Shown: one piece after another, positions 5,283-60,817 of the stretch
Position numbering within the stretch: the first letter of the stretch is position 1
Layout: every line of letters begins with the position of its first letter
Assembly: GCA_963922205.1 (NCBI GenBank)
Contig: CAWUHX010000005.1
Coordinates: 2,887,623-2,951,622, forward strand
DNA from: Romanomermis culicivorax
Lineage: Eukaryota > Nematoda > Enoplea > Mermithida > Mermithidae
Direction of reading: 5' to 3'
Length of the DNA: 64,000 nt
The notes under the pieces: generated by a model
What the model was told of the DNA's origin: nothing
Database searches by the model: none
What the model saw: only the letters and a program-made list of their open reading frames with translations
Position numbers and translations under genes: made by a program

Positions 5283-5741
5283 TCAGAGGGCTGCTATCAG
5301 TCCCCTCAAGATGATAGGTTTCATAATAGAATCTCTGACGTCAGTCATGAGATCCCAATAAGCCACCATGGATAATCTCCATAGGTGCTCAAGATGGACT
5401 ATAGCTGACTCAGTCCACTTCTGCAGAGAATCATGGATCAGCTGCTGATCCAGATCTGAGTTATGCCCAACCGAAAAGTCTTTATGTAGAAAACTCATAA
5501 ACTCTTCATAACTGGTAGGCTGTGGAGCACCACTGCTAAAGTCCCAGTAGGGGGCAAGAGCAGGACCTGTGAGGCAAGACTTCAAAAAAGCGATTTTATA
5601 TGCATGATCCATTTTGCTTACACCCTGAAGTGTAAAGAAATGGGTCAAGTGAGATATATAATTGGTTATGGACTCACCAAAAGCACCCGAAAAGGTAGGT
5701 GGGGCCATGAAGCTGGACACACAAGGGTGCCTCCGCATCAC
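5283..5741 (-). pseudogene. Gag capsid-like remnant of the old minus-strand Gypsy element
   Basis: The 152-codon open frame begins near PPTFSGAFGESITNYISHL, matching the start of the Gypsy gag capsid ('P..F.G......w...v..yf'). It continues with YKIAFLKSCLTGPALAPYWD (the 'k...a...L.G.A..W' block) and SYEEFMSFLHKDF ('tw..f...f...F'). This is the usual retrotransposon gag domain, which would assemble the intracellular particle. It lies furthest right of the element's domains, so the element's 5' end should be just beyond about 5.75 kb. I could not recognise a 5' LTR boundary there. No zinc knuckle is seen. Confidence 0.75.
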
Positions 5742-45871: not shown

Positions 45872-47132
45872 TTGTTGATTGAAATATTTTCTATAAAATT
45901 CATTTTCAATCTCACATGTGCTTTTGAATCAATTTCTTTTATACTTGTGGTCAGGAGGAAGCACTTGAAGCACACCTCATCCTGTTCAGTAGAGCCAAAA
46001 TTCAAACTAGCACTTTCAGAAACTTTTCAGAAAGTCATGAACAAAGCAAAGTATCTTATAATTGCTAACACTGCAGACATCATGTCAAAATTAGATGATA
46101 CAGATACTGACCTGGATCAGTCACTGATGGGTGTTCAACCAGATGTCTTGGCACAAACAGTTGGAAAGGTTTTTCAAGATGTTATTGACCCATTAAGCAG
46201 AACATTGCAAAACATGAATCTAGCTATGGCCAAAAATACAAAATGAATCAGGATAAACCCTAATTTTCATTTCAGGATGCAACCAACATTTTCAGGATGC
46301 ATTGGAGAGTCGTTCAGTAACTGGCAGGAGAAACTAGAAAAATACATGGTTCTTCAAGTAATTTCTCCTTCTGAAACTATGAGAAAGCTTACCTTGAATT
46401 AAGTCTAGTGAGTCAAGCACTGGCTACACTGCATTATACCCAAAAATCAATACTTGCTCCATTTTCATGTTAAGGTTTAGTGGACAAACTAAAGCAACAG
46501 CATCCTGATGGAAGATGTTCATCAACGGATGATTTTTGATTGAAAACAAAAAGTAACTGAATTTGCTGATGAATACATGGATCTTTTGAGGCAACTGGCA
46601 TGAGTGCTTCATCCAACTTTAGATACTTGTACAAAATGGTCTGTTATGAAACTAATTTCTATATGAGGCTTATTCCCAGAAATAAGTCACAATTAAAGTA
46701 CAGTGAATTTCATACTTTAGAAAACGCTCTGGAAGCAATCGAAACTGTACAGAGATGAAATTGGCTCAGTGTAACAAGTTGATAATGTTTCTAATTCAAC
46801 CATGCAAATTTAATTCCATATGTCATGAAAGGCATTTGTTGTGTCGATTTGTGATCAAACAGCTTTACCTAATAACCACCACCAAGGTGGAAGTGATCAC
46901 CTACATCAACAACAACCATTTTCTCCACATTAACTATAATCAATACAATGTTTAATTTACACTCGTTATATACAATAAATGAGACAGGAGCGAAAATTGC
47001 TTGGCACCATGATTTTCAGGTGATAGTGATGGAACACATCAACTAACTGTTCAAAATACAACATCCAATAGATCAAGTATCAGACAACACAGGAAGACTA
47101 ACTAATCAGAATGCTGTTGAGGAATCTCATCC
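45872..47132 (+). pseudogene. Old retroelement gag/pol remnant hosting the nested insertion (left part)
   Basis: 45872-46246 is open for 124 codons (with QPDVLAQTVGKVFQDVIDPLS). From about 46540 to 46755 the frames carry a gag capsid pattern: TEFADEYMDLLRQLA, then NFYMRLIPRNK and FHTLENALEAIETVQ, matching the 'eFa..l..L......F..Glr..i......tl.eA...a' layout. Just before 47132 the frame contains DFQVIVMEHI and a D-x-SDNTGRLTN stretch resembling the end of Gypsy RNase H ('f.v.y.pG..N..ADaLSR'). Gag is followed too closely by RNase H, so the old copy is internally deleted. The frame continues beyond the inserted element at 60818. Confidence 0.55.
47129..47132 (+). repeat. Target-site duplication, left copy
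   Basis: ATCC immediately before the LTR's first TG. It matches 60814-60817. Confidence 0.85.
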
Positions 47133-47970
47133 TGTCAGAGGGTCAATTCCTCTGACCTTTGGTCCTCTAATTACATCATTTCATTTTCTAAAGTTTCTTT
47201 AGTGCTAAAGTGTTTTCATTTATTCTCAGGTAAACAAACCGATAAAACGGTTTGTGTCACTCATATTTTTGGTCTAAAATAAACAAATGGTTGGCGCAAA
47301 TGTTTTGCATATTACTTGCAAGTCGATGTTAGACGCGCGACAGCGTTTTTATTCACTCTCGTTTTTTCTTATTATTATTATTGTGAAAAATATTCTCGTC
47401 CGGAGATTCGCCTCTCCCTTGTGTATAATTGGCGTCTGCACCATAGCATTTGGACGCTGTGTTATTTTGGACGGTGGTGACGAAGTAGAGGGTCGTCGTT
47501 TTTGTTCATTTTGTATTTCGTGATACGCGCCGCGGGCGAATTTGAGTAATAACGCGGCCTGAGACGTTTCCGACGTTCCATTTTGAAAGAGAGGAATCAG
47601 TGAGTGGTTGTTTGAGTTAGTTTACTTATTTTTTGGTAGAGTTTCAGCTTAGGCCGTGGCCTGAGAGATCCCATTGGCCCTGTGGCTCGTTGCTCAGGGA
47701 CAAGTCAGAAGGATCAGTCGACTAGGGAGGTTGTTGGCGTTAGTGTGTATATTTTCGGCACTCTGCACCTTTGTTTCGTACTTACATTCCTCATTGTATT
47801 CCACTACCTGTTGTGTTTTGCTCACCAATAAACGTTCACGTACATCAAGTCTCAACTCACTGCAGTAGGAGTGAAATTAGTACCGGGTTAGCGTCAGGGG
47901 CCGTACCAGATTGGATCTCCCAAGAACCGCAGGTAGGCAGCCGAGGGCATACGACCACATTAATACGACA
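47133..47970 (+). repeat. 5' LTR, 838 bp
   Basis: Starts TGTCAGAGG and ends TACGACA. It carries two short perfect inverted repeats in the presumed U3 (GTCAGAGG/CCTCTGAC at 47134-47156 and ACAAACCG/CGGTTTGT at 47234-47255). A TATAAT-like box lies at 47424-47429 and an AATAAA at 47827-47832 that could serve as polyadenylation signal; roles are inferred. It differs from the 3' LTR at 47443, 47455, 47486 and 47955. Short open frames inside it are duplicated in both LTRs and are not genes. Confidence 0.95.
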
Positions 47971-47971
47971 T

Positions 47972-47989
47972 TGGTGACTTGTACAGCTA
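47972..47989 (+). promoter_or_regulatory. Primer-binding site
   Basis: TGGTGACTTGTACAGCTA begins one base after the 5' LTR. TGG complements the CCA tail of a tRNA, as expected for priming of minus-strand DNA synthesis. I could not assign the tRNA species from the sequence alone. Confidence 0.75.
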
Positions 47990-48001
47990 CAAAGGTAAAA
48001 G

Positions 48002-51000
48002 ATGAAGAAAGTATCGAAGCCGAAATTAACGATACGGAAGCAACCTGGACGATGGCCGAAAGTAACATTATCACAAATGGAATTGAATAAAGAGGATCAC
48101 GACGAACGGATGGCAAATATGGAAGCAACGATCGAACAAGTAGCAAAGAAATTTGCGAATTCACCCGATGACAGCAATAAAGATCAGACTATTGACGCAG
48201 AGACATATGATTATGCGGATCAGGGGATACAGACGTCCTCTGGTTCAGTATCATCCTTCGAAAAGATTAATGTAACTCCAAAAACGAATGTGGTATCATT
48301 TCATAATCCGAAATATACGCCTACAATACCGGAAATTGACGCAAAAATTGGTGTCGAAACGAAACCGAGGAATGAAACCGAAAGACCGACGAAAGGGAAT
48401 TTGCAGGATGTGGCCACTTTAGCCATCCTGGAATCAATGCAAAGAGCAGTCGATAAATCAACAAATGCCGTTAATGTGGAAAGAACGAAAGCAGCGCTCC
48501 GGGAACAAGAAATATTAGAGCAACTTATGCAAGAAAGAGCAGAGAGAAAATTATTGGAAGAAAGGTTACGAGAACAGGATCAACAAAATGCGAGAAAGAT
48601 AATGGAAGAGGTCGAAAAACAAATGCGGGAATTGATGAGGAAAACGGACAAGAAGCTCGATGAAAGAATATCGAATTATGAAAATGCAGAAATACTTCAG
48701 TCTGAACCGGTTAAAGACCATTTAGACAGGAGTTTAGAAAGAAAATTAAATTGGTTCGAAAATCATCTTGCCCAGGCCCAGGCTCAAGGTGCACAACATC
48801 GAAGGATGGAAGATGAAATACCAACGATGTCATGGAATCGCGGAATGGAACAACCTGTGTCTGGAAGTATAAATCGAAATCCGCAAGATTTTGGACGATA
48901 TTGTGAAGATCCCGAAAAAAGAATCAAGATAATTTTAGGTCGAATGAAGAATAAAGAAATATCGGATAAAATGGAGGCTGCAGAAATACTCAATTTTTTC
49001 GCCTGTTTGGAAGGTACATTCAAGCCTGAAGATACGGAAGATCTAAGAATTGAAGTACTTTGGCGATGCTGCGATTTTGAAACATCGACATACGTGGATA
49101 AAAATAGTAGCTATGAAGAAGGAAAAGCGAGTGTGATTAGAATGATTGCTCCCAAAATGGACAATCCTGCACTTAGAAGGGAGTTACATGATATGAAAAA
49201 ACGAAAAGGGGAGACGACAAAGGATTTTCTACGACGAATAAAGACCTATGTTCATTTATTGAATTACGAAAAAACGGAAAATGAACGAAACAGAATCGTT
49301 ATCGAAACGTATTTTCACAAAGCTCCAGTTTACGTCCAAACTCGAATGGAAGGTCGGCTTCACGAATTCAAAAATATCGCCTCTTTGGCGGAATTCGTAA
49401 ACAAATTGAAAGCGGATACGACGGCCTGGAAGGAATTCAGCGAGGACCAAGAAGACGGCGAAGATGATCGGTTGAATCGAGTCTATGAAAATAGAAGATT
49501 TAATAATTTACAATTTCGTCCACAGGATAGTAATACTGGTCAGCAACAACAGATTATACGGCCTCAGCAAATTTTCCCGCCGCCACCAGCATTTCAAACC
49601 CCTTTGTCTCAACAGGATATTATGAAAATGGTTAATGAAGCAATTAGGAATCAGGGCCCTCCAGCTCTTAATCGTTGGGGAGTCAATAATAATCCTAGTA
49701 ATGTACCATATAATAACAATTTACCTGGTAGAATTTTGGGAAATCCGTATCGTCGACCATATTGTACATACCACAAATCGAATAGTCATTCGTCTGAAAA
49801 TTGTTTTATCCTGCACCCGGAATTGATCCAACCAACGGATCAAGGGAGGTCGTGGAATCGCGGCAATAATTTTTATAATCGAAATTTTGACCATGGCGGC
49901 GGCTTTGTAAATCGTGGAAGAGCAGGATTTGCTAATTTCGGTCAATGGGTGCCATATCACAATAATAATGTCGAACAGAATCCAAATGTGGCATATTATT
50001 ACCGCCAAAATAGCGCCCCGCAGCCACCACCAAATGTTGCACCAGTAACGCCAACGCAACCGGTGAATAACCCTCCGAATAATTCCGTAAATGTTATAAA
50101 TTCACAAGAGGCTAAAAAACAAGATAAGCCGGAAATTATAGCATTAGATGGAGTTTTGATAAAGAATTACGAGTTAGGCTTGGGGAACGTTATCAATTCT
50201 ACTTCAGAGACGAAGCCTAGACTCGCTAATGATAACGAGCACCTATTTTTGGAAAATTTTCGCAAATGTCAACCGTTATTGATACCCGTTAGGATACGCG
50301 GAGAAGAATTTAAAGCCTTAATCGATACGGGAGCGCAATCTAGCTTCATGAGGACAGATACAGCGTCGAGGCTACTGAATACGCCCAAGACAAAATTTCC
50401 TATCTTAAATTCAGTCGTAACAGCTGTCCGAAAACGGGTGACAACATATGGTCCTACATTTGTGTACGTTGGAACCGGTTTTGGGAATTTTCTGGCCAGA
50501 TTCGCATTACTAGATAACCTAAATGAAGGTATTATATTGGGTCTAGATTTTCTAACCCATCCTAGTATACAGGCGTCTATCGATTTTCGAAAAGGCCACA
50601 TACGCCTAGCAAATGTAGAGAGACAAATTATTAGTGAGACATTATTCGACGATGCTCAAATACCGTCGCGGTTGCCGATTCCTACGAATCCCATGGTTTT
50701 GGATTATGTACCTCTACAAGAAGAAGTCAAAGAAGAAGATCTACCTGAGTTAGAAAGTGATGAGGATCAAGAACAAGTTATGCGAATTACCGAAATGAAC
50801 GAGGAAACCTTTATTTGGACGAAAAATGGGACATATATTCCCCCAAATACCACTTCTTTTGTGCAAGCGGTGGTGTGGCCACAGAAAGATTGGGCAAAGG
50901 GTCCCATAGTGGTAGAAGAAACGGGGAAAGACACATTATTTGACGTCGATGCCTCAATTGTGGACGCTAGGGACAACAATTTTCGTATCCTACTCATAAA

Positions 51001-54000
51001 TGAGACAAACAAAGGAATCAAATTGCGCAGCAACGAGTTGATAGCCAAGTCCAAAACGAAGTTCGTGGGGCCAGAATTTGACGAAAAAATACATCAACTG
51101 CAATCAGAGCCTCAAACTCAATGGCAAGCCGAACCGGAATTCGTAAAAATTGTTACGCAATTGGTAAAAGAATCGAGTGTCGATAGAAAAGGACAGCAAC
51201 AGCTTATGAATGTCTTACTCAAGCATAGGCAGGCATTCAGCATGAAGAAGGACCCTTTAACCATGACCCACGAAGCAGAGCATAAGATCGATACAGGAGA
51301 CGCGTTACCTGTTCAAAAACACTACTGGAGAGCTCCAATTATGCTAAGAGATATAATTCGAGAACATGTGAAAGATATGATGGAGAAGGGTGTCATCGAG
51401 CCTTCTAGAAGCCCTTGGGCTGCGCCATTGTTTTTAGTAGGCAAAAAAGATGGCACATGGAGACCAGTAGTCGACTACAGGGGAATCAATCAAGTGACGA
51501 AAGACGACAAATTTCCGATACCTCGAATAGATGATTATTTAGATGCGCTGGGAGGAGCACGGTACTTTTCCACTTTGGATTTAAAGTCTGGGTACTGGCA
51601 GGTACCGATGCACTCCGAATCAAAAGAAAAAACAGCATTTATATGTCAAGAAGGGTTGTTCCAGTTCAAGGTGATGCCATTCGGTTTAAAGAATGCTCCC
51701 GCGGAATTTCAGCGACTAATGGAACGAATTTTGTACCCGTATGTGTGGAAAATATGCTTAGTATATATCGACGATGTCATAATTTTTTCAAAAACCATCG
51801 AAGAACATATAGAAAATTTGGAGACAATATTTCGATGTCTAACAAACGCGAACCTCACGCTAAAACCTGACAAATGTTCCTTTATGCCAGCCAGTGTGAA
51901 ATTCTTAGGCCACATATTGGACAAGAATGGAATGTCAGTAGATCCACAAAAGATAGAAGCGGTAAAAAATTTCGAAGTACCCAAATCCATCAAGCAGCTG
52001 CAAAAGTTCTTGGGATTAGTGCAGTGGTCTAAACGTTTCATTCACAATTTAGCCTTTATCGCCCAGCCCTTATTTAAAGCCCTCGCAAAGAAAAATAGGA
52101 AGGAAAAGTTTGAACTTTCAGAGGAGCAGTTAGCAGCTTTTGAAAGTGTAAAGAATGCCCTAATGACGGCACCCTTCCTCCGATATCCAGTATTCGACGG
52201 ATCAGCAAGATTTGTAATTCAAACAGATGCCTCAGGAACGGCAATAGGGGCAATTTTGTATCAGGAAACGGAAAATGATCGATGGACAATAGCTTACTCG
52301 AGTCGAGTTTTAAACGACGCGGAAACAAGGTATTCAACGACAGAAAGAGAATGTTTGGCGGTAGTTTACGGGTTCAAGCAGTATAGGCACTACGTGATGG
52401 GGTTTAGGGTCACAATCAGGACAGACCATAAACCACTCACGTGGCTCTCCGCAGAGAAACAGCAAAATCAAAGGTTGTTAAAATGGGCTTTATATCTTGG
52501 CCAATTTAATTATATATTCGAATACATAGCCGGACGTGAAAACGCCTTCGCAGATTTCTTATCACGATCCGAAGAAAAGGGAAAGATTCGAAGTAAAAGA
52601 CAAGAAACAAAGGAAGAAATCGAAGATGAGATATCGACTACGGAACCCGAATGCATGGCGGTTACGAGAGCCATGACGAGGAAAATGCTTGAACCCGAGA
52701 CTCAGGAAACATTCATTGATCCTCCACCGCCGACGCAACAAGAAATAGATCAAACACCGAAGGAAGTGAAAGAAGATTCCGAATTATTATCCCTGGAATT
52801 AGTTGAGAAACAACAGCAATTGGATCCGAAGTTGGTGGACATTTTTCGGAACGTTGGTGAAAATAGTTCGAAAAAATACTTTAATAGTTTTCACTTGGAA
52901 AGCGGAGTATTATACCGTGAAAATGCCCATGGAAAAAGCCAACTAGTGATCCCATCAAAACTTAGACACCTCATCTTACATCAATATCACGGCGATACAT
53001 TAATGGGGCACCAGGGAATAGATAGAATTATCGCCGCGATAGGAAACAAGTTTTGGTGGCCAAATATGGAAAACGACATTATTAAATGGATAAAATCCTG
53101 CGTCGTTTGCCAACTGTGCCGCCCCATAGCAAATCCGATCCAACCACTTAACCCAATACCCGTCTCGTACCCGTGGGAGATAGTAGCAACCGATGTGGTC
53201 AGTATTTCGCCCCTTCGAGAAAAAAGACCATACGTTATTGTATTTATGGACTATTTCACGAAATGGGTTGAAGCAAAATGCATCCCAGATCAAAAGGCCG
53301 ACACAATAGTGAAGGCATTTATGGAAAAGGTCATTTATACGCACGGAACGCCGAAACACTTGCTGAGTGACCAAGGCTCAGCCTACATGTCCGAGTTAAT
53401 GCGCAACGTGTGCGATCTCTTAAAAATAAAGAAAATAAATACAACACCATACCACCCGCAATGCAATGGTATGGTGGAGAGATTCAACAGAACACTAATA
53501 GAGCAAATTAGAAGAGTCGCAATAACCGACCCGGACGATTGGCCACACTATCTCGAGCAAATTTTATTTGCATATCGGATTACGCCGCACAAAACAACGA
53601 AAAATTCCCCCCATAGCCTACTGTACGGACACGAGGCAAGGTTTCAATTGGATAATGAGATAGCGAGACCAATAATTATCCAGAATAATTACGATACCTA
53701 CAGATACATGTTAACGGAGCACCTCCTTAACACGTATAAAATCATAAATGAAAATCATAAAAAATCCGCGGCCGAAAGAAAACTACAGTATGATAAGAAG
53801 GCTTGCGAGAAGACGTTCCAAACGGGAGAACTTGTTCTCTACCAGAAGGGAATTATCAAAGGAAAGGCCGATACAACAAACGACGGTCCATACGAAGTAA
53901 TTGAGACATCGAATTTAGAAAAAAATGTCATTAAAATACGTCGCGCTGGGAAACCAGATTCGCGCGTACAAATAGTTTCTGTAAATCGCGTAATGCCTTT

Positions 54001-54034
54001 TGTTACGCGAACGCCCGATTTTTACTGTAATTAA
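48002..54034 (+). CDS. gag-pol: Gag-Pol polyprotein, 2010 aa
   Basis: A single uninterrupted frame. The ATG at 48002 lies 31 bp after the LTR. Order: a coiled coil rich in Glu, Arg and Gln (residues about 165-230); a gag capsid-like helical region (about 300-475); a Gln/Asn/Pro-rich segment; a zinc-knuckle variant [14 protein letters not shown] (588-601, Cys and His ligands); protease with LIDTGAQSS (Asp775). RT follows with [10 protein letters not shown] (Asp1193) and YIDD (1255-1258), then RNase H with QTDASG (Asp1409), TERECLA and TDHKPLTW. Integrase has a zinc domain (His1663, His1670, Cys1700, Cys1703) and a DD35E core (Asp1731, Asp1790, Glu1826), then a basic C-terminal domain. Every catalytic residue I checked is present. 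Gag and pol share one frame with no stop or shift between them, so protein ratios must be set by other means. No dUTPase or chromodomain was recognised. Confidence 0.95.
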
Positions 54035-54433
54035 CAATTCATTTTTATCGTTTTCGTTGTGCGTTTTGCTAGGATTAATTTTATGTGTATTTCCTAATGC
54101 CCTATGTATTGTATTTTTTCTAACCTTTTCCCCTTTCTTCTTTTTCAATTTTTAATTGTACTGACTTATTTTTGGCAACTTTATGGCAAGTTTTAGGCAT
54201 TTTCCAAAAAATTACGACGCCGGAAAATTTTTAATGGGCGAAATAATATTTTTTCACGCGCTCAGTGTGAAGAAATTAAATCTTTATAAGTCCCGGGAAA
54301 ATCTTCCCCAAATCATTGAAGTCGCGAAGCCGAGGAATTATGGAATTATTATTTAGATTTCATTTGCAAAGCGTTAGTGTATTAGTAATTTTCGTCGATT
54401 GGAAATTTCAAGAAATTCGGATCCAAACGCGAT
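54035..54433. other. Spacer between gag-pol and the second ORF
   Basis: 399 bp of AT-rich, non-coding sequence containing T-runs. It ends at the ATG that opens the exonuclease ORF. It could carry an internal promoter or splice acceptor for that ORF, but none is clear. Confidence 0.5.
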
Positions 54434-57400
54434 ATGGCAACGTCCACTATCGTCGAAATTGATAGCACCTTCGGGCAGCCTCAAGATCGGCAAGATAATA
54501 CGAATTTTCAACTTAGTAGTAAGTATCGGAAAGGTAGAATATATGTTGAAATTTTTCGGAATAGGACTCTAAGTTGACCGGCCGGCAATTTATATGCCGA
54601 GGATTTTGGGTGTTTGAGAGCCTGATCAACTCCCCTTCGTCCAAATTTATTCTTGTGCATTTGAGTCGTTTTTTTTGTTTCGAAATTATTGTCAAAAATT
54701 GTAGTTAGAAAATTGTGTGAAAATTTTAAGATTACAATGTTCGAAGATTAGTGCGTTCAACGGATATTTCAAATTATTTCACGTCGTTGTTCGGTGTGCC
54801 TCATGCGGCCATCGAAGAACCATTATTTTTGGCGCCCGAAAATTTGAAAGCATTTATTAGGGCGATAAACAATTCGAAGTTTCGAGGACGGATAGTCATA
54901 GCCTTGGATACAGAAAGTGGGAGGAAGCCAAAAACCCCAGGATCGAAGCCTAGCGACGCATTGCGACTTTTAACAATTTCAACCATGTGCGGAAAGAACT
55001 TCATAATCGATTTGAAATTTTGAGACAAAGAACATTTCCACAAAGTATATGGAACAATATTTCGCCGCGAAAACATCATCGTCGGTTTTCATATTCGAGA
55101 GGACATCACGTTAGTTTTGACCAAATTCGGATATTTGGATCAAGAAAAGGAACTAGTGCGGAAAAGACGGGACAACATAGATTATATTTTATCATGCTGC
55201 GTTTACGATTTGGAGATTGTGTTGGCAGAAATGAAGGACAAGCCCAAAGCAAGAATAGTCGGAATCAGCCCCGAAGGTCTCAATTTGAAAGCCCTCATGA
55301 CGGAAATTTTGTTTTTATGGGCCGACGCCTTCAAGATTTCGTGGGGACAGTTGAGTTCCCTAGAGTTTCGACAGCTAATAGAGGCAGATAAGCTAAACAT
55401 AGAACTTCTGAGATACGCGACGCTCGAGGCGCGCGGGTCTCTTTTATGTTTCTTAGCGTTACTTCGATACGGATTCGCGAGCGATATTCAAAATTGCTTT
55501 CAATTGTATCCACACGACACGATGGAGCCGGAATTGATCTCCGATCTAGCACGAAGATTTAGAGATACGTTCGAAGGTAGATATGCCGATCCAGACTGGA
55601 AAGGAGCATATGGAGTGGAAGAAGTAACGGATAACACCGACGCATTGTATTTCATGATGCGTGGAGAAGCTATCGCGACGTATAAATTGTCGGAAGAAAT
55701 GGCGCCCGGGACTTTTCATTGTCCTCCGCATTTCTCCAATACCGATATTGAGCCACAGCCAGTACCAAACAGTTGGTTCCCGTGGATAGAGAGAAAAGTG
55801 AAAGCGTCAAGGAAAAGAAAAGATACTGACGATTCCGAAGAAGCACCGACAAACGATTGGGATTTAGAGGATATCTTGGCGGCACGACAGTTCGGACGAC
55901 CAATTGAACCCCGGGAAATGGAAATGAAAAAAGGAAAATGGCCTAAGGAAGTGATCCAATTCACTAATGTTATACGAGAACAAGTTTCGGCACTTAAAGA
56001 CCATTATCACTCCAAAATCAACCGATCAATCGTCCCCGTAGTCAAAGATTTGTACGAGAAAAACGTAAACCCAATCATTTACTTCTTGTGGCCTCACTCG
56101 GCGCAAGAGTGGAAATCCTCGGTTCCTGGATTCACGTCTGGTATGTGGGCCTCTGTGTGGAGAACTGAACAGGAACGGGTTGAATTCATGAAGTGGATGG
56201 GCCAGGATCTTTTGAACGACAAAATTACCGATCAAATGGAGCAGATGATGGAACGGTATCCGAAGATACGTACGCAGAAATCCATCCAGAACACTTTTTG
56301 CGTACTACCTATAAGATGGATACCGCGATCCTGCAAAGAACCTATCCAAGAAATAAAGACGAATTTGCGCGATAATTCTATTTATCATATGAATTGTAAC
56401 TTTTATAACTTGTTTCATTTTCTGAATATCCATGCCGCGAGTCAGAACCTCATTTACTGGAATGTTTCCGCGTCCATATTCGAGGCTAAGGACCTATGGG
56501 CCCCTAGCACCTCTGCGACTTTTAAATCTGTAAATAAGTGGGACGATTCAGATCTGATTCCGCAAGTAGAAGTTGTGGTTCCCGCTAGCCAGGGCCCTAT
56601 GGAAGAAACTTCGAAGGAGCAGACTGTAACAGTACCCTCTACAATAGATAATTCGAATGTTTCAGGTACCGAGATGGAGCAAGAGAAACCCGTAGTTGTG
56701 GTCATCACGGATCCCCCTATCGCCAGTACACCCGCTGAGGGGAGTACAGGTGTTGAAGAGGAGGAGAAACTCATGGAAATAGTCGAAACTGAAAAAGAAA
56801 CTCAACCCGATTTGGAGAAATTAACCGACCAGATAAAAGAAATGAAAGAAAAAATAGAAGTTTTGGAAAAAGAAAAATACGGCAAGGCCGCAATCGAATT
56901 AGCAAAGCAATTAGAAGATGTCAATCCCGAGCAAGAAGAAACGAGCGAAGAACCCTACGTGGAAGTGGTATCAGAGATCGGTAGCGATGACGAAGAAATT
57001 ACGGATAACGTTTTGCCCACGCCGCCGGTTTATGCAAAAGCCGGTGGGCAAAATGTAGAGAATATCAAGAATCCGGGAAAATTTGCGAAAGTGATGCAAT
57101 TGAAAAGACAGGCTACAGAGAAACGGATAGATCGCGAAGAAAATAAAGCCGAACTGGACAAAGTAAAGAGCGGGCAGTTTCAACAGCCAGCCGGAAATCC
57201 GAATGATAAAGTCAAATATCGACGAGGCCTCGGGAAACGGGGACAAGTTCTTAACAAGGCCTTGAAGGAAGGAAAGTACGTTGTCGATTTCCAGTATGGG
57301 AGAGTATCTCTGTCAAACCCATGTGTCCAGAAGTATCTCGCGCACATGGATCCAACTTTAGACGAAGAGGTAGCTCTAATGGCGACGGATTTGATAAACC

Positions 57401-58803
57401 GTGTGTACGACGAAGCCGGGATCGAAATTGAAACTATACGATATTACGAACTACAGTTTCACGTTCTACAGGCGAATTTGCCAGAAAAATTGTGGAGTAT
57501 TTTCGAGCTTCAATTAACGGAATGGAGTACTACACGATCTGCGGAGAAAGCTTATGAAGCCGCCGTATGGGCTTGCGCGTGTCTATTTATGAAATTGTCG
57601 AGATTGGGCAGGATTCCCCAAAATTTCGCTGGATTCCATTACCAAGCCCATGCGTATGTTACGATGAAATTGCGTCGCGAGTTCAACGCTAGGCAAGGAG
57701 GAGCAGGGAGCAATTTTCATAGGTTATACTCCTCATGTCAGGCAAAGGCAGCGGGGTTAGCGTATACGATTGCTAAGGCCGTGTTACAAGACAAGAAGGA
57801 CCCTGAACCCAAATACGCGAATATACAAGTTTGGAAGAAGGAAATTGACAATACAGACCCCAGAATACGGTTTTGGGAAGTTATCAATCGAAAGAAAGCT
57901 CGTGATGTATTGGAAGTTCAAAAAGCCTTAAAGAAAAGAGTGGGATACCGAGTCAAGCATGCCCACGCTAGGCCTGCGACCACTAAGGTATCCAAACGAT
58001 GGAGTAGAAAAAAAAGTGATACGCAAAGAACGGAGAAATCGAAAACGCCGGAAAACGACAGAAAAAGAAGGCACGAAAGTCGACACAGAGACGAAAGTCG
58101 TCACGAGAAGTCAATGTCGCGAGAAAAGAAACGCAAGGAAGCTGAAGAAGAAAGTTGGCGCAAGGAGATCGATGATTACGAAAGAAACTACGAAAGGAAG
58201 GAAAAAGAAAAGAGAGAGGAGGCAGAACGTAAAGATAGTAGAGAGTCGCGAAGTAGAAAAAGAACATCGGCATACTACCAACACGATGATAGAGTGGACG
58301 TGTCCTACTCCAGTCGAAGGACTTCACTGGATAGGTCTAGGGCCACCGAAACAACTCAGCAAGGAGTGTCAATGGCCGATCCAAACGCGATGATGCAAGC
58401 CCAGCAGCAGCAGTTACCTTATTTACCGCCGAATTATCCGGGATTGCCGATGGTGGGTGTTGATTGTATAAACCGCCCTCTTTTTTCAGGACAATTATTC
58501 CCGAATACAATGGTGCCGCCGCCGGCACAGTTTCAAATGCCGCAGTTTCCGGTCATGCAATTCCAGGCCGGGCAACCCCAATTTTACCACCAGTTCTTAG
58601 TTCCGCCGGGAATGCAGATGCCTCTGCCTATGATGATTCCGCCGGTGCGTAATGTGCAAACCGAGGAAAGGATGGACATCCCGGGGACGTCTACGAGTAC
58701 GAGACCGCCGTCGACCGAAAATCCCGATTATATTTCGCCGCTTAAACGGGAAACCGGTATTGGTCAACCGGGACGTGACCATAGCGGTCATAGAAGGAAG
58801 TAA
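54434..58803 (+). CDS. Second ORF: DEDDy exonuclease-like protein with long C-terminal extension
   Basis: Predicted exons are 54434-54518 (ATG, acidic 28-codon start) and 54752-58803, joining in frame for about 1378 codons. The frame has one TGA at 55021-55023. Domains: a 3'-5' exonuclease-like fold with IALDTES (Asp at 54907, Glu two codons on; Exo I), VGFHIRED (Asp at 55102; Exo II), VYDLEIVLAE, LNLKALMTEIL, and LRYATLEAR (Tyr at 55414, Glu in place of the usual Asp four residues later; Exo III). This resembles the WRN/MUT-7/Nibbler type that trims RNA or single-stranded DNA 3' ends. Then come an acidic Ser/Thr-rich linker and coiled coil (about 56810-56930), an unrecognised mostly helical domain (about 57260-57950), an Arg/Ser/Glu/Lys-rich stretch (about 57985-58280) and a Pro/Gln/Met-rich tail (about 58370-58790). 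There is no signal peptide or membrane span, so it is not an envelope. Nuclear or RNA-granule action is inference from the RS-like region. Confidence 0.8.
54519..54751 (+). other. Predicted intron in the second ORF
   Basis: Donor GTAAGT at 54519 and acceptor TTAG ending at 54751, 233 bp, with stops inside. Removing it joins a 28-codon exon to the exonuclease frame through an ATG codon split across the junction. An alternative is a donor in the leader (AAAG|GTAAAA at 47995) spliced to 54751, giving a subgenomic RNA as for env genes; both may be used. Confidence 0.5.
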
Positions 58804-59963
58804 ATTTTTTATGTTTCAGATGACCCCGCTCTCCGTGAGGTCATTATAAAGATAATTATTTCGCTCTGTAAAATTTCTTTGATATTTCAAAAGTTGCCTA
58901 TTTTTTCCGTTTTGAGCGTCTGTATTACAAAATCGAAACCGGTTGTGCCACCTTTTTATGCCTTAAAGTTGCCTCCTGTACTAATCTCAAATTGTTTCAT
59001 TTATTTTTTCGTTTGTGTTTTGTTCGAGATCTGCACGGGAATATACCGTATTTCTTTTTTTTGCGAATCTGGAAATTATTGAGCAATTTTTTGTATTTTC
59101 TTAAATCTCGGGTATTTTGTTCCTTTCCGACAAAAGTCACCAACTGGCATCGCCCAAGGATAGCAGGCTTTGCGCTGCCATTTTCATATTTTTTCCATCT
59201 TTTTTCCAAAACACATTTTCATTCTAAAATTTTTTTTTTTTCGTGGCACAGACCGTGTTATGGGTTTAAGTTTACCTCTTAATAAGGCAAATTCACTTTA
59301 GCAATAAATACCATAAATATTTTTGGATCAAAATCTAGACAGCCAAAGGGCCAGAGGATTTGGTTTTCGGGCATCCTTTCTCCCTGGGGGCAGATAATGC
59401 CAAAGGCGTCGGGGGGGCCAGTGTCCGGCCAAGGGGCCAGAGGAGCAACGGCGGCGGAATTTGGAAAGTCTTGCGGGCTCTCCACGAGCAACAACCCCCC
59501 CTCCGGAGAGGACGGAGACGAATGCCATAATCCGTGATGGAGGAGCCGCCGATACGAAATACATCGACGGCAGTGGGGAGCAGCCCACAACCTAACTCGG
59601 GCACCGCGGGGGTCGCCGCCGATTAAACGTTTTTATTTTTATCGTGACCAAATTCGGCCCGAGGGCCGCGAACGCTATTCGTTCAAACAATTTTTTATTC
59701 TTTTATTCGGGACCACGAGCCCACGGGGCATTTTATTAGTGAACTTTGTAGCGTCGGGGGTAGCATCCGGCGCAATTGGCCCAAAGTTGTAAAGATACCG
59801 TCGGATACGGACGTTTTTATTTTTTATTGTTTACAATTGCGTCAACAGCGCGTAGCGTCGTTGTTTGGAACATTTGGAGGCGTCGAGCGTCGGCGTCGAG
59901 GGTCTGGGGCCCTTGGGGGACCTCCTGACTTTTCCCTTCGCTGGCGGGAAAAGTCTTGCCTTT
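58804..59963. other. 3' non-coding region of the retrotransposon
   Basis: 1.16 kb after the second ORF. The first half is AT-rich with T-runs. The second half (about 59340-59960) is strongly GC-rich, with GGGGCCAG-type words and long accidental frames on the minus strand. No gene is recognised. It could hold packaging, export or terminator signals, but the sequence alone does not show which. Confidence 0.5.
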
Positions 59964-59975
59964 GGGGGGGAGGGA
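59964..59975 (+). promoter_or_regulatory. Polypurine tract
   Basis: GGGGGGGAGGGA directly abuts the 3' LTR and is the expected RNase H-resistant primer for plus-strand DNA synthesis. Confidence 0.85.
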
Positions 59976-60813
59976 TGTCAGAGGGTCAATTCCTCTGACC
60001 TTTGGTCCTCTAATTACATCATTTCATTTTCTAAAGTTTCTTTAGTGCTAAAGTGTTTTCATTTATTCTCAGGTAAACAAACCGATAAAACGGTTTGTGT
60101 CACTCATATTTTTGGTCTAAAATAAACAAATGGTTGGCGCAAATGTTTTGCATATTACTTGCAAGTCGATGTTAGACGCGCGACAGCGTTTTTATTCACT
60201 CTCGTTTTTTCTTATTATTATTATTGTGAAAAATATTCTCGTCCGGAGATTCGCCTCTCCCTTGTGTATAATTGGCGTCTGCACCGTAGCATTTGGATGC
60301 TGTGTTATTTTGGACGGTGGTGACGAAGGAGAGGGTCGTCGTTTTTGTTCATTTTGTATTTCGTGATACGCGCCGCGGGCGAATTTGAGTAATAACGCGG
60401 CCTGAGACGTTTCCGACGTTCCATTTTGAAAGAGAGGAATCAGTGAGTGGTTGTTTGAGTTAGTTTACTTATTTTTTGGTAGAGTTTCAGCTTAGGCCGT
60501 GGCCTGAGAGATCCCATTGGCCCTGTGGCTCGTTGCTCAGGGACAAGTCAGAAGGATCAGTCGACTAGGGAGGTTGTTGGCGTTAGTGTGTATATTTTCG
60601 GCACTCTGCACCTTTGTTTCGTACTTACATTCCTCATTGTATTCCACTACCTGTTGTGTTTTGCTCACCAATAAACGTTCACGTACATCAAGTCTCAACT
60701 CACTGCAGTAGGAGTGAAATTAGTACCGGGTTAGCGTCAGGGGCCGTACCAGATTGGATCTCCCAAGAACCGCAGGTAGGCAGCCGAGGGCATACGATCA
60801 CATTAATACGACA
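59976..60813 (+). repeat. 3' LTR, 838 bp
   Basis: Same length and ends as the 5' LTR. It differs at 60286 (G for A), 60298 (T for C), 60329 (G for T) and 60798 (T for C). The AATAAA corresponding to the 5' copy lies at 60670-60675. Confidence 0.95.
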
Positions 60814-60817
60814 ATCC
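60814..60817 (+). repeat. Target-site duplication, right copy
   Basis: ATCC immediately after the 3' LTR's terminal CA. It matches 47129-47132. Confidence 0.85.

What the first reader, a model, noticed from the sequence alone, without database searches (positions are those of the whole stretch)
54434..58803. Gypsy retrotransposon carrying a DEDDy exonuclease ORF in the env position
Directly seen: an LTR element with complete gag-pol has, downstream, a ~1378-codon ORF whose N-terminal part shows the Exo I (IALDTES), Exo II (GFHIRED) and Exo III-like (YATLE) motifs in the right order and spacing, with the intervening 'YDLxxxLAE' and 'LNLKAL' blocks of the MUT-7/WRN exonuclease family. Established: bdelloid rotifer LTR elements (and Penelope-like elements) have been reported with DEDDy exonuclease ORF3s. 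If this host is not a rotifer, or if the extension is new, this is an independent or shared capture. The enzyme could trim cDNA or RNA 3' ends or counter small-RNA silencing; that is inference.
Basis: partly seen in the sequence, partly recalled or inferred. Interest (0 to 1): 0.88.

Follow-up and report, generated by a model that had tools for sequence, protein, structure and literature searches.

The report
Worm retrotransposon family carrying an exonuclease
A large family of jumping genes in a nematode (very likely the mosquito parasite Romanomermis culicivorax) carries, where a retrovirus would have its envelope gene, a two-exon third gene predicted to encode an enzyme that trims RNA or DNA ends; across copies that enzyme domain is conserved about as strongly as the element's integrase, although the copy in this window is broken.

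Summary
The finding is mostly right and reaches further than stated. Window 47133-60813 is a Ty3/Gypsy LTR element (838-bp LTRs, 834 identical; one 2010-aa gag-pol frame). The assembly matches the published Romanomermis culicivorax v2 in size and scaffold number, so the host is very likely this nematode, not a rotifer. The third gene has two exons (54434-54518, 54731-58803); one genomic copy lacks exactly the 212-bp intron, best read as splicing. The window copy is defective: an in-frame TGA at 55021-55023 and Exo III Asp changed to Glu. Among 34 copies the stop is private and 32 keep Asp. No Pfam, PDB or fold search identifies the domain directly at a significant level. It does align (82 bits, 30% over 230 aa) with an older family in the same genome that matches Pfam DNA_pol_A_exo1 above cut-off, all three exonuclease motifs in register. 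pN/pS is 0.078 in this domain and 0.080-0.085 in the adjacent integrase. A second Gypsy lineage in the same genome carries a different DEDDy exonuclease in the same position. Precedent: bdelloid rotifer ORF3s (2017). MUT-7/WRN kinship is not shown for this family. Catalysis and substrate are untested.

The parts
47129..47132 (+). target-site duplication ATCC, 5' side
   Evidence: read directly
47133..47970 (+). 5' LTR (TG...CA), 838 bp
   Evidence: LTR alignment 834/838 identical, no gaps
47972..47986 (+). putative primer-binding site beginning TGG, just after the LTR
   Evidence: read directly; tRNA not identified
48002..54034 (+). gag-pol, single 2010-aa frame: Gag (by position), protease, RT, RNase H, integrase
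   Evidence: Pfam RVT_1 4.9e-41, RT_RNaseH 3.4e-35, Integrase_H2C2 7.3e-20, rve 6.3e-14, gag-asp_proteas 1.2e-6
54434..54518 (+). ORF3 exon 1 (85 nt, ATG, MATSTIVEIDSTFGQPQDRQDNTNFQLS)
   Evidence: ATG and frame in all 34 copies; joined to exon 2 in R. culicivorax gene models P0003, P0004, P0006 and in natural copy L065
54519..54730 (+). 212-bp GT-AG intron
   Evidence: GTAAGT and AG in all 34 copies; exactly absent from L065; whole genome: 1 spliced-junction match against 167 intron-exon 2 matches
54731..58803 (+). ORF3 exon 2; N-terminal DEDDy exonuclease-like domain about 54805-55536, then about 1090 residues without a known domain (acidic stretch, basic R/K/E/S-rich stretch, P/Q-rich tail)
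   Evidence: pN/pS 0.122 overall, 0.078 over 54733-55500
54907..54915 (+). Exo I D-T-E
   Evidence: D and E in 34 of 34 copies
55021..55023 (+). in-frame TGA private to this copy
   Evidence: Trp in the 33 other copies
55084..55104 (+). Exo II GFHIRED
   Evidence: G and last D in 34 of 34 copies
55414..55428 (+). Exo III YATLE; the family form is YATLD
   Evidence: Y in 34 of 34; last residue D in 32 of 34 copies, E here, N in one
59964..59975 (+). polypurine tract before the 3' LTR
   Evidence: read directly
59976..60813 (+). 3' LTR
60814..60817 (+). target-site duplication ATCC, 3' side
   Evidence: read directly

Best explanation
The window holds one broken copy of a large Ty3/Gypsy LTR-retrotransposon family of a nematode, very likely Romanomermis culicivorax, whose two-exon third gene, in the env position, is predicted to encode a 3'-to-5' exonuclease of the DEDDy type that would likely trim 3' ends of the element's own RNA or cDNA. 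Shown: LTRs, duplicated target site, gag-pol frame, two-exon ORF3 with a copy that lacks exactly the intron, catalytic residues kept across copies, low pN/pS, many copies. Predicted from homology: the exonuclease fold and catalysis. Inferred: that ORF3 is made from spliced RNA while Gag-Pol comes from unspliced RNA; that it works in trans as an accessory replication factor; that the substrate is the element's own RNA/cDNA 3' end. A second Gypsy lineage in the same genome has a different DEDDy exonuclease in the same place, so I read the activity as something these elements repeatedly benefit from.
For: LTR element and gag-pol. Host: assembly of 359,112,060 bases in 595 contigs equals the published R. 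culicivorax v2 (359.1 Mb, 595 scaffolds; PMC10879605, passages); the 14 protein-database hits (1, 13) are all R. culicivorax gene models. Exonuclease: window family vs family C, BLASTP 82 bits, E 1e-22 for the single comparison, 30% over 230 aa, three motifs in register, Smith-Waterman 196 vs at most 58 in 500 shuffles; family C matches PF01612 over cut-off (L079 1.5e-7, or 5.5e-8 trimmed; L081 4.1e-7). Two relatives (P0006, P0008) carry the UniProt name 3'-5' exonuclease domain-containing protein. The low-confidence fold has 13 of its 14 best Foldseek rows among DEDD 3'-5' exonucleases, 7 of the 13 being EXD2 chains (At5g06450, RICE1 and the exosome chain 5k36_J so classed from recall). Residues: D, E, D, Y in 34 of 34 copies, last D in 32 of 34. 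Selection: pN/pS 0.078 vs integrase 0.080-0.085. Splicing. Second lineage: PF01612 1.7e-13; integrase sequence within 1.5 kb upstream in 28 of 30 loci, one of which supplied the query.
Confidence: 0.6

Rival explanations
1. ORF3 is a genomic-RNA handling or nuclear-export factor like CERV of C. elegans Cer1: the exonuclease fold is kept mainly as an RNA-binding module, and the long basic tail helps move unspliced genomic RNA out of the nucleus.
For: Same position and splicing as Cer1 CERV, a Gypsy/Ty3 env-position protein made from spliced RNA and required for genomic-RNA export (PMC10309623, passages). A retained intron means the genomic RNA must leave the nucleus unspliced. Long basic and P/Q-rich tail. 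Inactive DEDD derivatives that keep RNA binding are known (Maelstrom, EXD1; said in PMC5408684, passages).
Against: Catalytic acids are conserved, which binding alone would not require. No sequence comparison with CERV was made.
Confidence: 0.2
2. ORF3 is a counter-defence enzyme that trims host small RNAs or their precursors.
For: MUT-7/Nibbler-type DEDDy exonucleases act in small-RNA pathways (established knowledge; a mut-7-like role is mentioned in PMC5408684, passages). The second lineage's best PDB sequence match is a mut-7 homolog, E 0.0012.
Against: R. culicivorax is reported to lack Piwi/piRNAs and 5'-triphosphate small RNAs (PMC4323106, passages), so the main targets are missing; siRNAs remain. 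MUT-7 kinship of the window family is not shown.
Confidence: 0.1
3. ORF3 is a divergent envelope protein and the exonuclease motifs are incidental.
For: Env position and splicing.
Against: No segment reaches usual transmembrane hydropathy (best 19-residue mean 1.29; the 1.6 rule is recalled); similarity to PF01612-positive family C.
Confidence: 0.03
4. ORF3 is a host gene fragment caught by chance in this copy.
For: The window copy carries a stop and a changed catalytic residue.
Against: 131 scored genomic matches at 87-100% identity, the window included, 47 of them with an open frame of at least 1355 aa and no stop inside the match (hand count); low pN/pS.
Confidence: 0.01

Closest known systems
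Bdelloid rotifer Vesta and Juno LTR retrotransposons with DEDDy ORF3 (Rodriguez, Kenefick and Arkhipova 2017, PMC5408684; abstract and passages seen; author names partly from recall)
   Same: LTR retrotransposons with an RNase D-like DEDDy ORF3 in place of env; the paper counts at least two independent acquisitions (Juno, Vesta).
   Different: Nematode host; two-exon ORF3 of about 1385 codons; family motif is DEDD, whereas the rotifer ORFs are reported as DEED; strong purifying selection here, whereas the paper reports no significant departure from neutrality for its extra ORFs; no rotifer protein among the hits (word-limited and capped searches).
Cer1 / CERV of C. elegans (PMC10309623; passages seen)
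   Same: Nematode Ty3/Gypsy element with an env-position protein made from spliced RNA.
   Different: CERV is 517 aa from 5 exons; the paper's main text does not contain the word exonuclease; sequence not compared here.
Second Romanomermis Gypsy lineage with a PF01612 ORF (L009-L038)
   Same: Same genome, exonuclease ORF of up to about 610 aa right after integrase.
   Different: Integrase only 34.5% identical; exonuclease shows no similarity to the window family above shuffles; best PDB matches mut-7 homolog 0.0012 and WRN 0.0059.

Membership tests
Ty3/Gypsy LTR retrotransposon | Paired LTRs with TG..CA ends and target-site duplication | tested here: met
   838-bp LTRs, 834 identical, ATCC duplicated
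Ty3/Gypsy LTR retrotransposon | PR-RT-RNase H-IN order in pol | tested here: met
   no RT tree was built, so the clade is unassigned
DEDDy 3'-5' exonuclease (PF01612-type) | Exo I DxE, Exo II D, Exo III YxxxD, in order | tested here: met
   family level: D, E, D, Y in 34 of 34, last D in 32 of 34 copies; the window copy itself has E at the last site
DEDDy 3'-5' exonuclease (PF01612-type) | Significant profile match of the domain itself | tested here: not met
   no Pfam family listed up to E 10 (HMMER's filters drop most weak matches); holds only through family C
DEDDy 3'-5' exonuclease (PF01612-type) | Homology to a PF01612-positive protein | tested here: met
   82 bits, E 1e-22 to L079, which scores 1.5e-7, trimmed 5.5e-8
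DEDDy 3'-5' exonuclease (PF01612-type) | DnaQ-like fold | tested here: inconclusive
DEDDy 3'-5' exonuclease (PF01612-type) | Metal-dependent 3'-5' nuclease activity | not testable with these tools
   -
MUT-7/WRN subfamily | Closer to MUT-7/WRN than to other DEDDy proteins | tested here: inconclusive
   no sequence match; EXD2, Rrp6, RNase D, WRN and Nibbler all appear in the weak fold lists
Bdelloid DEDDy ORF3 group | Shared ancestry with Vesta/Juno/Athena ORF3 | tested here: inconclusive
   all 14 protein hits were R. culicivorax (1, 13), but the searches need shared 5-residue words and scored only about 8000 candidates each
Retroviral-type env glycoprotein | Transmembrane segment | tested here: not met
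   best 19-residue hydropathy 1.29
CERV-like export factor | Env-position protein from spliced RNA | tested here: met
   position and intron; the RNA itself was not seen
CERV-like export factor | Genomic-RNA nuclear export | not testable with these tools
   -

The most novel reading that the evidence does not exclude
In mermithid nematodes a 3'-5' exonuclease has become a standard third gene of LTR retrotransposons: at least two unrelated Gypsy lineages in one genome each recruited their own DEDDy enzyme, and it processes or proofreads 3' ends during reverse transcription, giving these elements an exonuclease that their reverse transcriptase lacks.
Probability: 0.15. Interest if true: 0.85.

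Novelty: new variant of a known kind. Interest (0 to 1): 0.58.

Why it matters
Exonuclease third genes of LTR elements were reported from bdelloid rotifers, where their use was unclear. Here a high-copy nematode family keeps such a domain with about the same constraint as integrase, and a second Gypsy lineage in the same genome carries an unrelated-looking one. That turns an oddity into a repeated recruitment whose function can be tested. The intron-less genomic copy also gives a handle on how the gene is expressed. Among the rows listed (titles and abstract starts) in eight full-text searches I saw no report of it in nematodes; only open-licence PMC papers were searched and three of the lists showed only part of the matching papers.

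Tried and rejected

Counts and rows dropped: one search scored 34 of 422 first-look candidates; one search scored 131 of 2914; all counts of copies are lower bounds. L001 is the window itself and was removed from the 34-copy statistics. In alignment A4, 3 of 14 fetched divergent A copies were left out because of stops. For pN/pS, codons with gaps or stops were skipped; integrase values are for 8 copies (0.080) or 7 without L004 (0.085), the window included in both.

Full report
What the element is. Two direct repeats at 47133-47970 and 59976-60813 are 838-bp LTRs with 834 identical bases and no gaps, with TG..CA ends and ATCC duplicated outside them. Between them is one 2010-aa gag-pol frame with protease, RT, RNase H and integrase in that order; Gag is named by position. 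After 399 bp comes a third gene, and 1172 bp separate its end from the 3' LTR. The assembly has 359,112,060 bases in 595 contigs; the published Romanomermis culicivorax v2 assembly is 359.1 Mb in 595 scaffolds (PMC10879605, passages). The protein-database hits of this family (13) and of a second lineage (1) are all R. culicivorax gene models. The host is therefore very likely this mermithid nematode, a parasite of mosquito larvae, and not a rotifer.

The third gene. Reading three frames gives a short exon 54434-54518, a GT-AG intron 54519-54730 and exon 2 to the stop at 58803; phases fit. Over 34 distinct copies of this stretch (the window and 33 others, 94-98% identical to it), all keep ATG, GTAAGT and AG, 33 of 34 have no net frameshift in exon 2, and in 16 of 34 exon 2 runs unbroken to the final stop. 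One copy elsewhere (L065, C481) lacks exactly the 212 intron bases while the bases upstream of its ATG still align. A whole-genome pattern count finds 1 place with the spliced junction and 167 with the intron-exon 2 border, with 0 in the reversed-pattern control. The simplest reading is that the intron was spliced from an RNA that was then reverse-transcribed. UniProt gene models P0003, P0004 and P0006 join the same two exons.

The window copy is broken. Exon 2 has TGA at 55021-55023, between Exo I and Exo II, where the other 33 copies have Trp, and Exo III reads YATLE where 32 of 34 have the Asp. Family-wide the motif is complete: Asp and Glu of Exo I, Gly and Asp of Exo II and Tyr of Exo III are in 34 of 34 copies.

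Is it used? Pairwise over 34 copies (561 pairs), pN/pS is 0.122 for exon 2 and 0.078 for the exonuclease domain (54733-55500). For the neighbouring integrase it is 0.085 (7 copies) or 0.080 (8 copies). The domain has thus been about as constrained as integrase. A genome search with 301 aa scored 131 places of 2914 first-look candidates, 87-100% identical, 47 of them with an open frame of at least 1355 aa and no stop inside the match (hand count). Integrase lies directly upstream in 7 of 7 flanked copies, L002-L008.

A second recruitment in the same genome. The best 30 PF01612 loci (L009-L038; nine read in full) hold a different exonuclease, GLDAEF / GFASNCD / YAALDA, in an ORF of up to about 610 aa (PF01612 1.7e-13 in L009); 28 of 30 have integrase sequence on the same strand within 1.5 kb upstream, L032 having supplied the query. 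Its integrase is 34.5% identical to the window family's, and the two exonucleases are no more alike than shuffles. Its best PDB sequence match is a mut-7 homolog, E 0.0012. Whether the two exonucleases were captured apart or diverged beyond recognition cannot be told; I favour separate captures. A further set of long frames (1445 aa) matches family C at 25-27% and was not read.

How it likely works (inferred unless stated). Unspliced RNA serves as genome and Gag-Pol message. Removal of the 54519-54730 intron (indicated by L065) lets ORF3 start at 54434. An AAAG|GTAAAA sequence 7 nt before the gag ATG could be the donor of a leader splice, untested. The N-terminal domain would remove 3' nucleotides from the element's RNA or cDNA; the tail, acidic, then basic, then P/Q-rich, would bind RNA or partners. 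A Cer1 CERV-like role in genomic-RNA export (PMC10309623, passages) is the main rival. Anti-piRNA action is unlikely because this species is reported to lack Piwi and piRNAs (PMC4323106, passages).

Compared with what is known. DEDDy ORF3s in bdelloid LTR elements are in print (PMC5408684, passages), as independent acquisitions by Juno and Vesta, with the motif given as DEED and no significant departure from neutrality for the extra ORFs. The present case has a different phylum, a two-exon gene, a complete DEDD motif at family level and strong constraint. I file it as a new variant of a known kind. The rows listed in eight searches of open-licence papers showed no nematode report.

Noticed in passing
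L079, L081-L084 (family C), and places: An old family of DEDDy exonuclease ORFs, most copies with stops, related to the window family at about 25-30% identity; its element context was not read.
   Followed up: partly
   Followed up: no
L065 (G000 C481:40950-41950): Natural intron-less copy of the ORF3 start, the only spliced-junction match in the genome at up to 2 mismatches.
   Followed up: yes
window 47991-48000 (AAAG|GTAAAA, cut at 47994/47995): A possible splice donor 7 nt before the gag ATG, as in retrovirus-type subgenomic splicing.
   Followed up: no
window 5286-5741 (-): 152-aa frame with a weak Ty3_capsid match (E 0.0082, below cut-off), possibly another Gypsy remnant.
   Followed up: no
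P0001, P0012, P0013 (R. culicivorax gene models in UniRef): Host gene models that fuse other exons (gag in P0012 and P0013) with exonuclease-ORF pieces; TE ORFs have entered the species' annotated proteome as ordinary proteins.
   Followed up: partly
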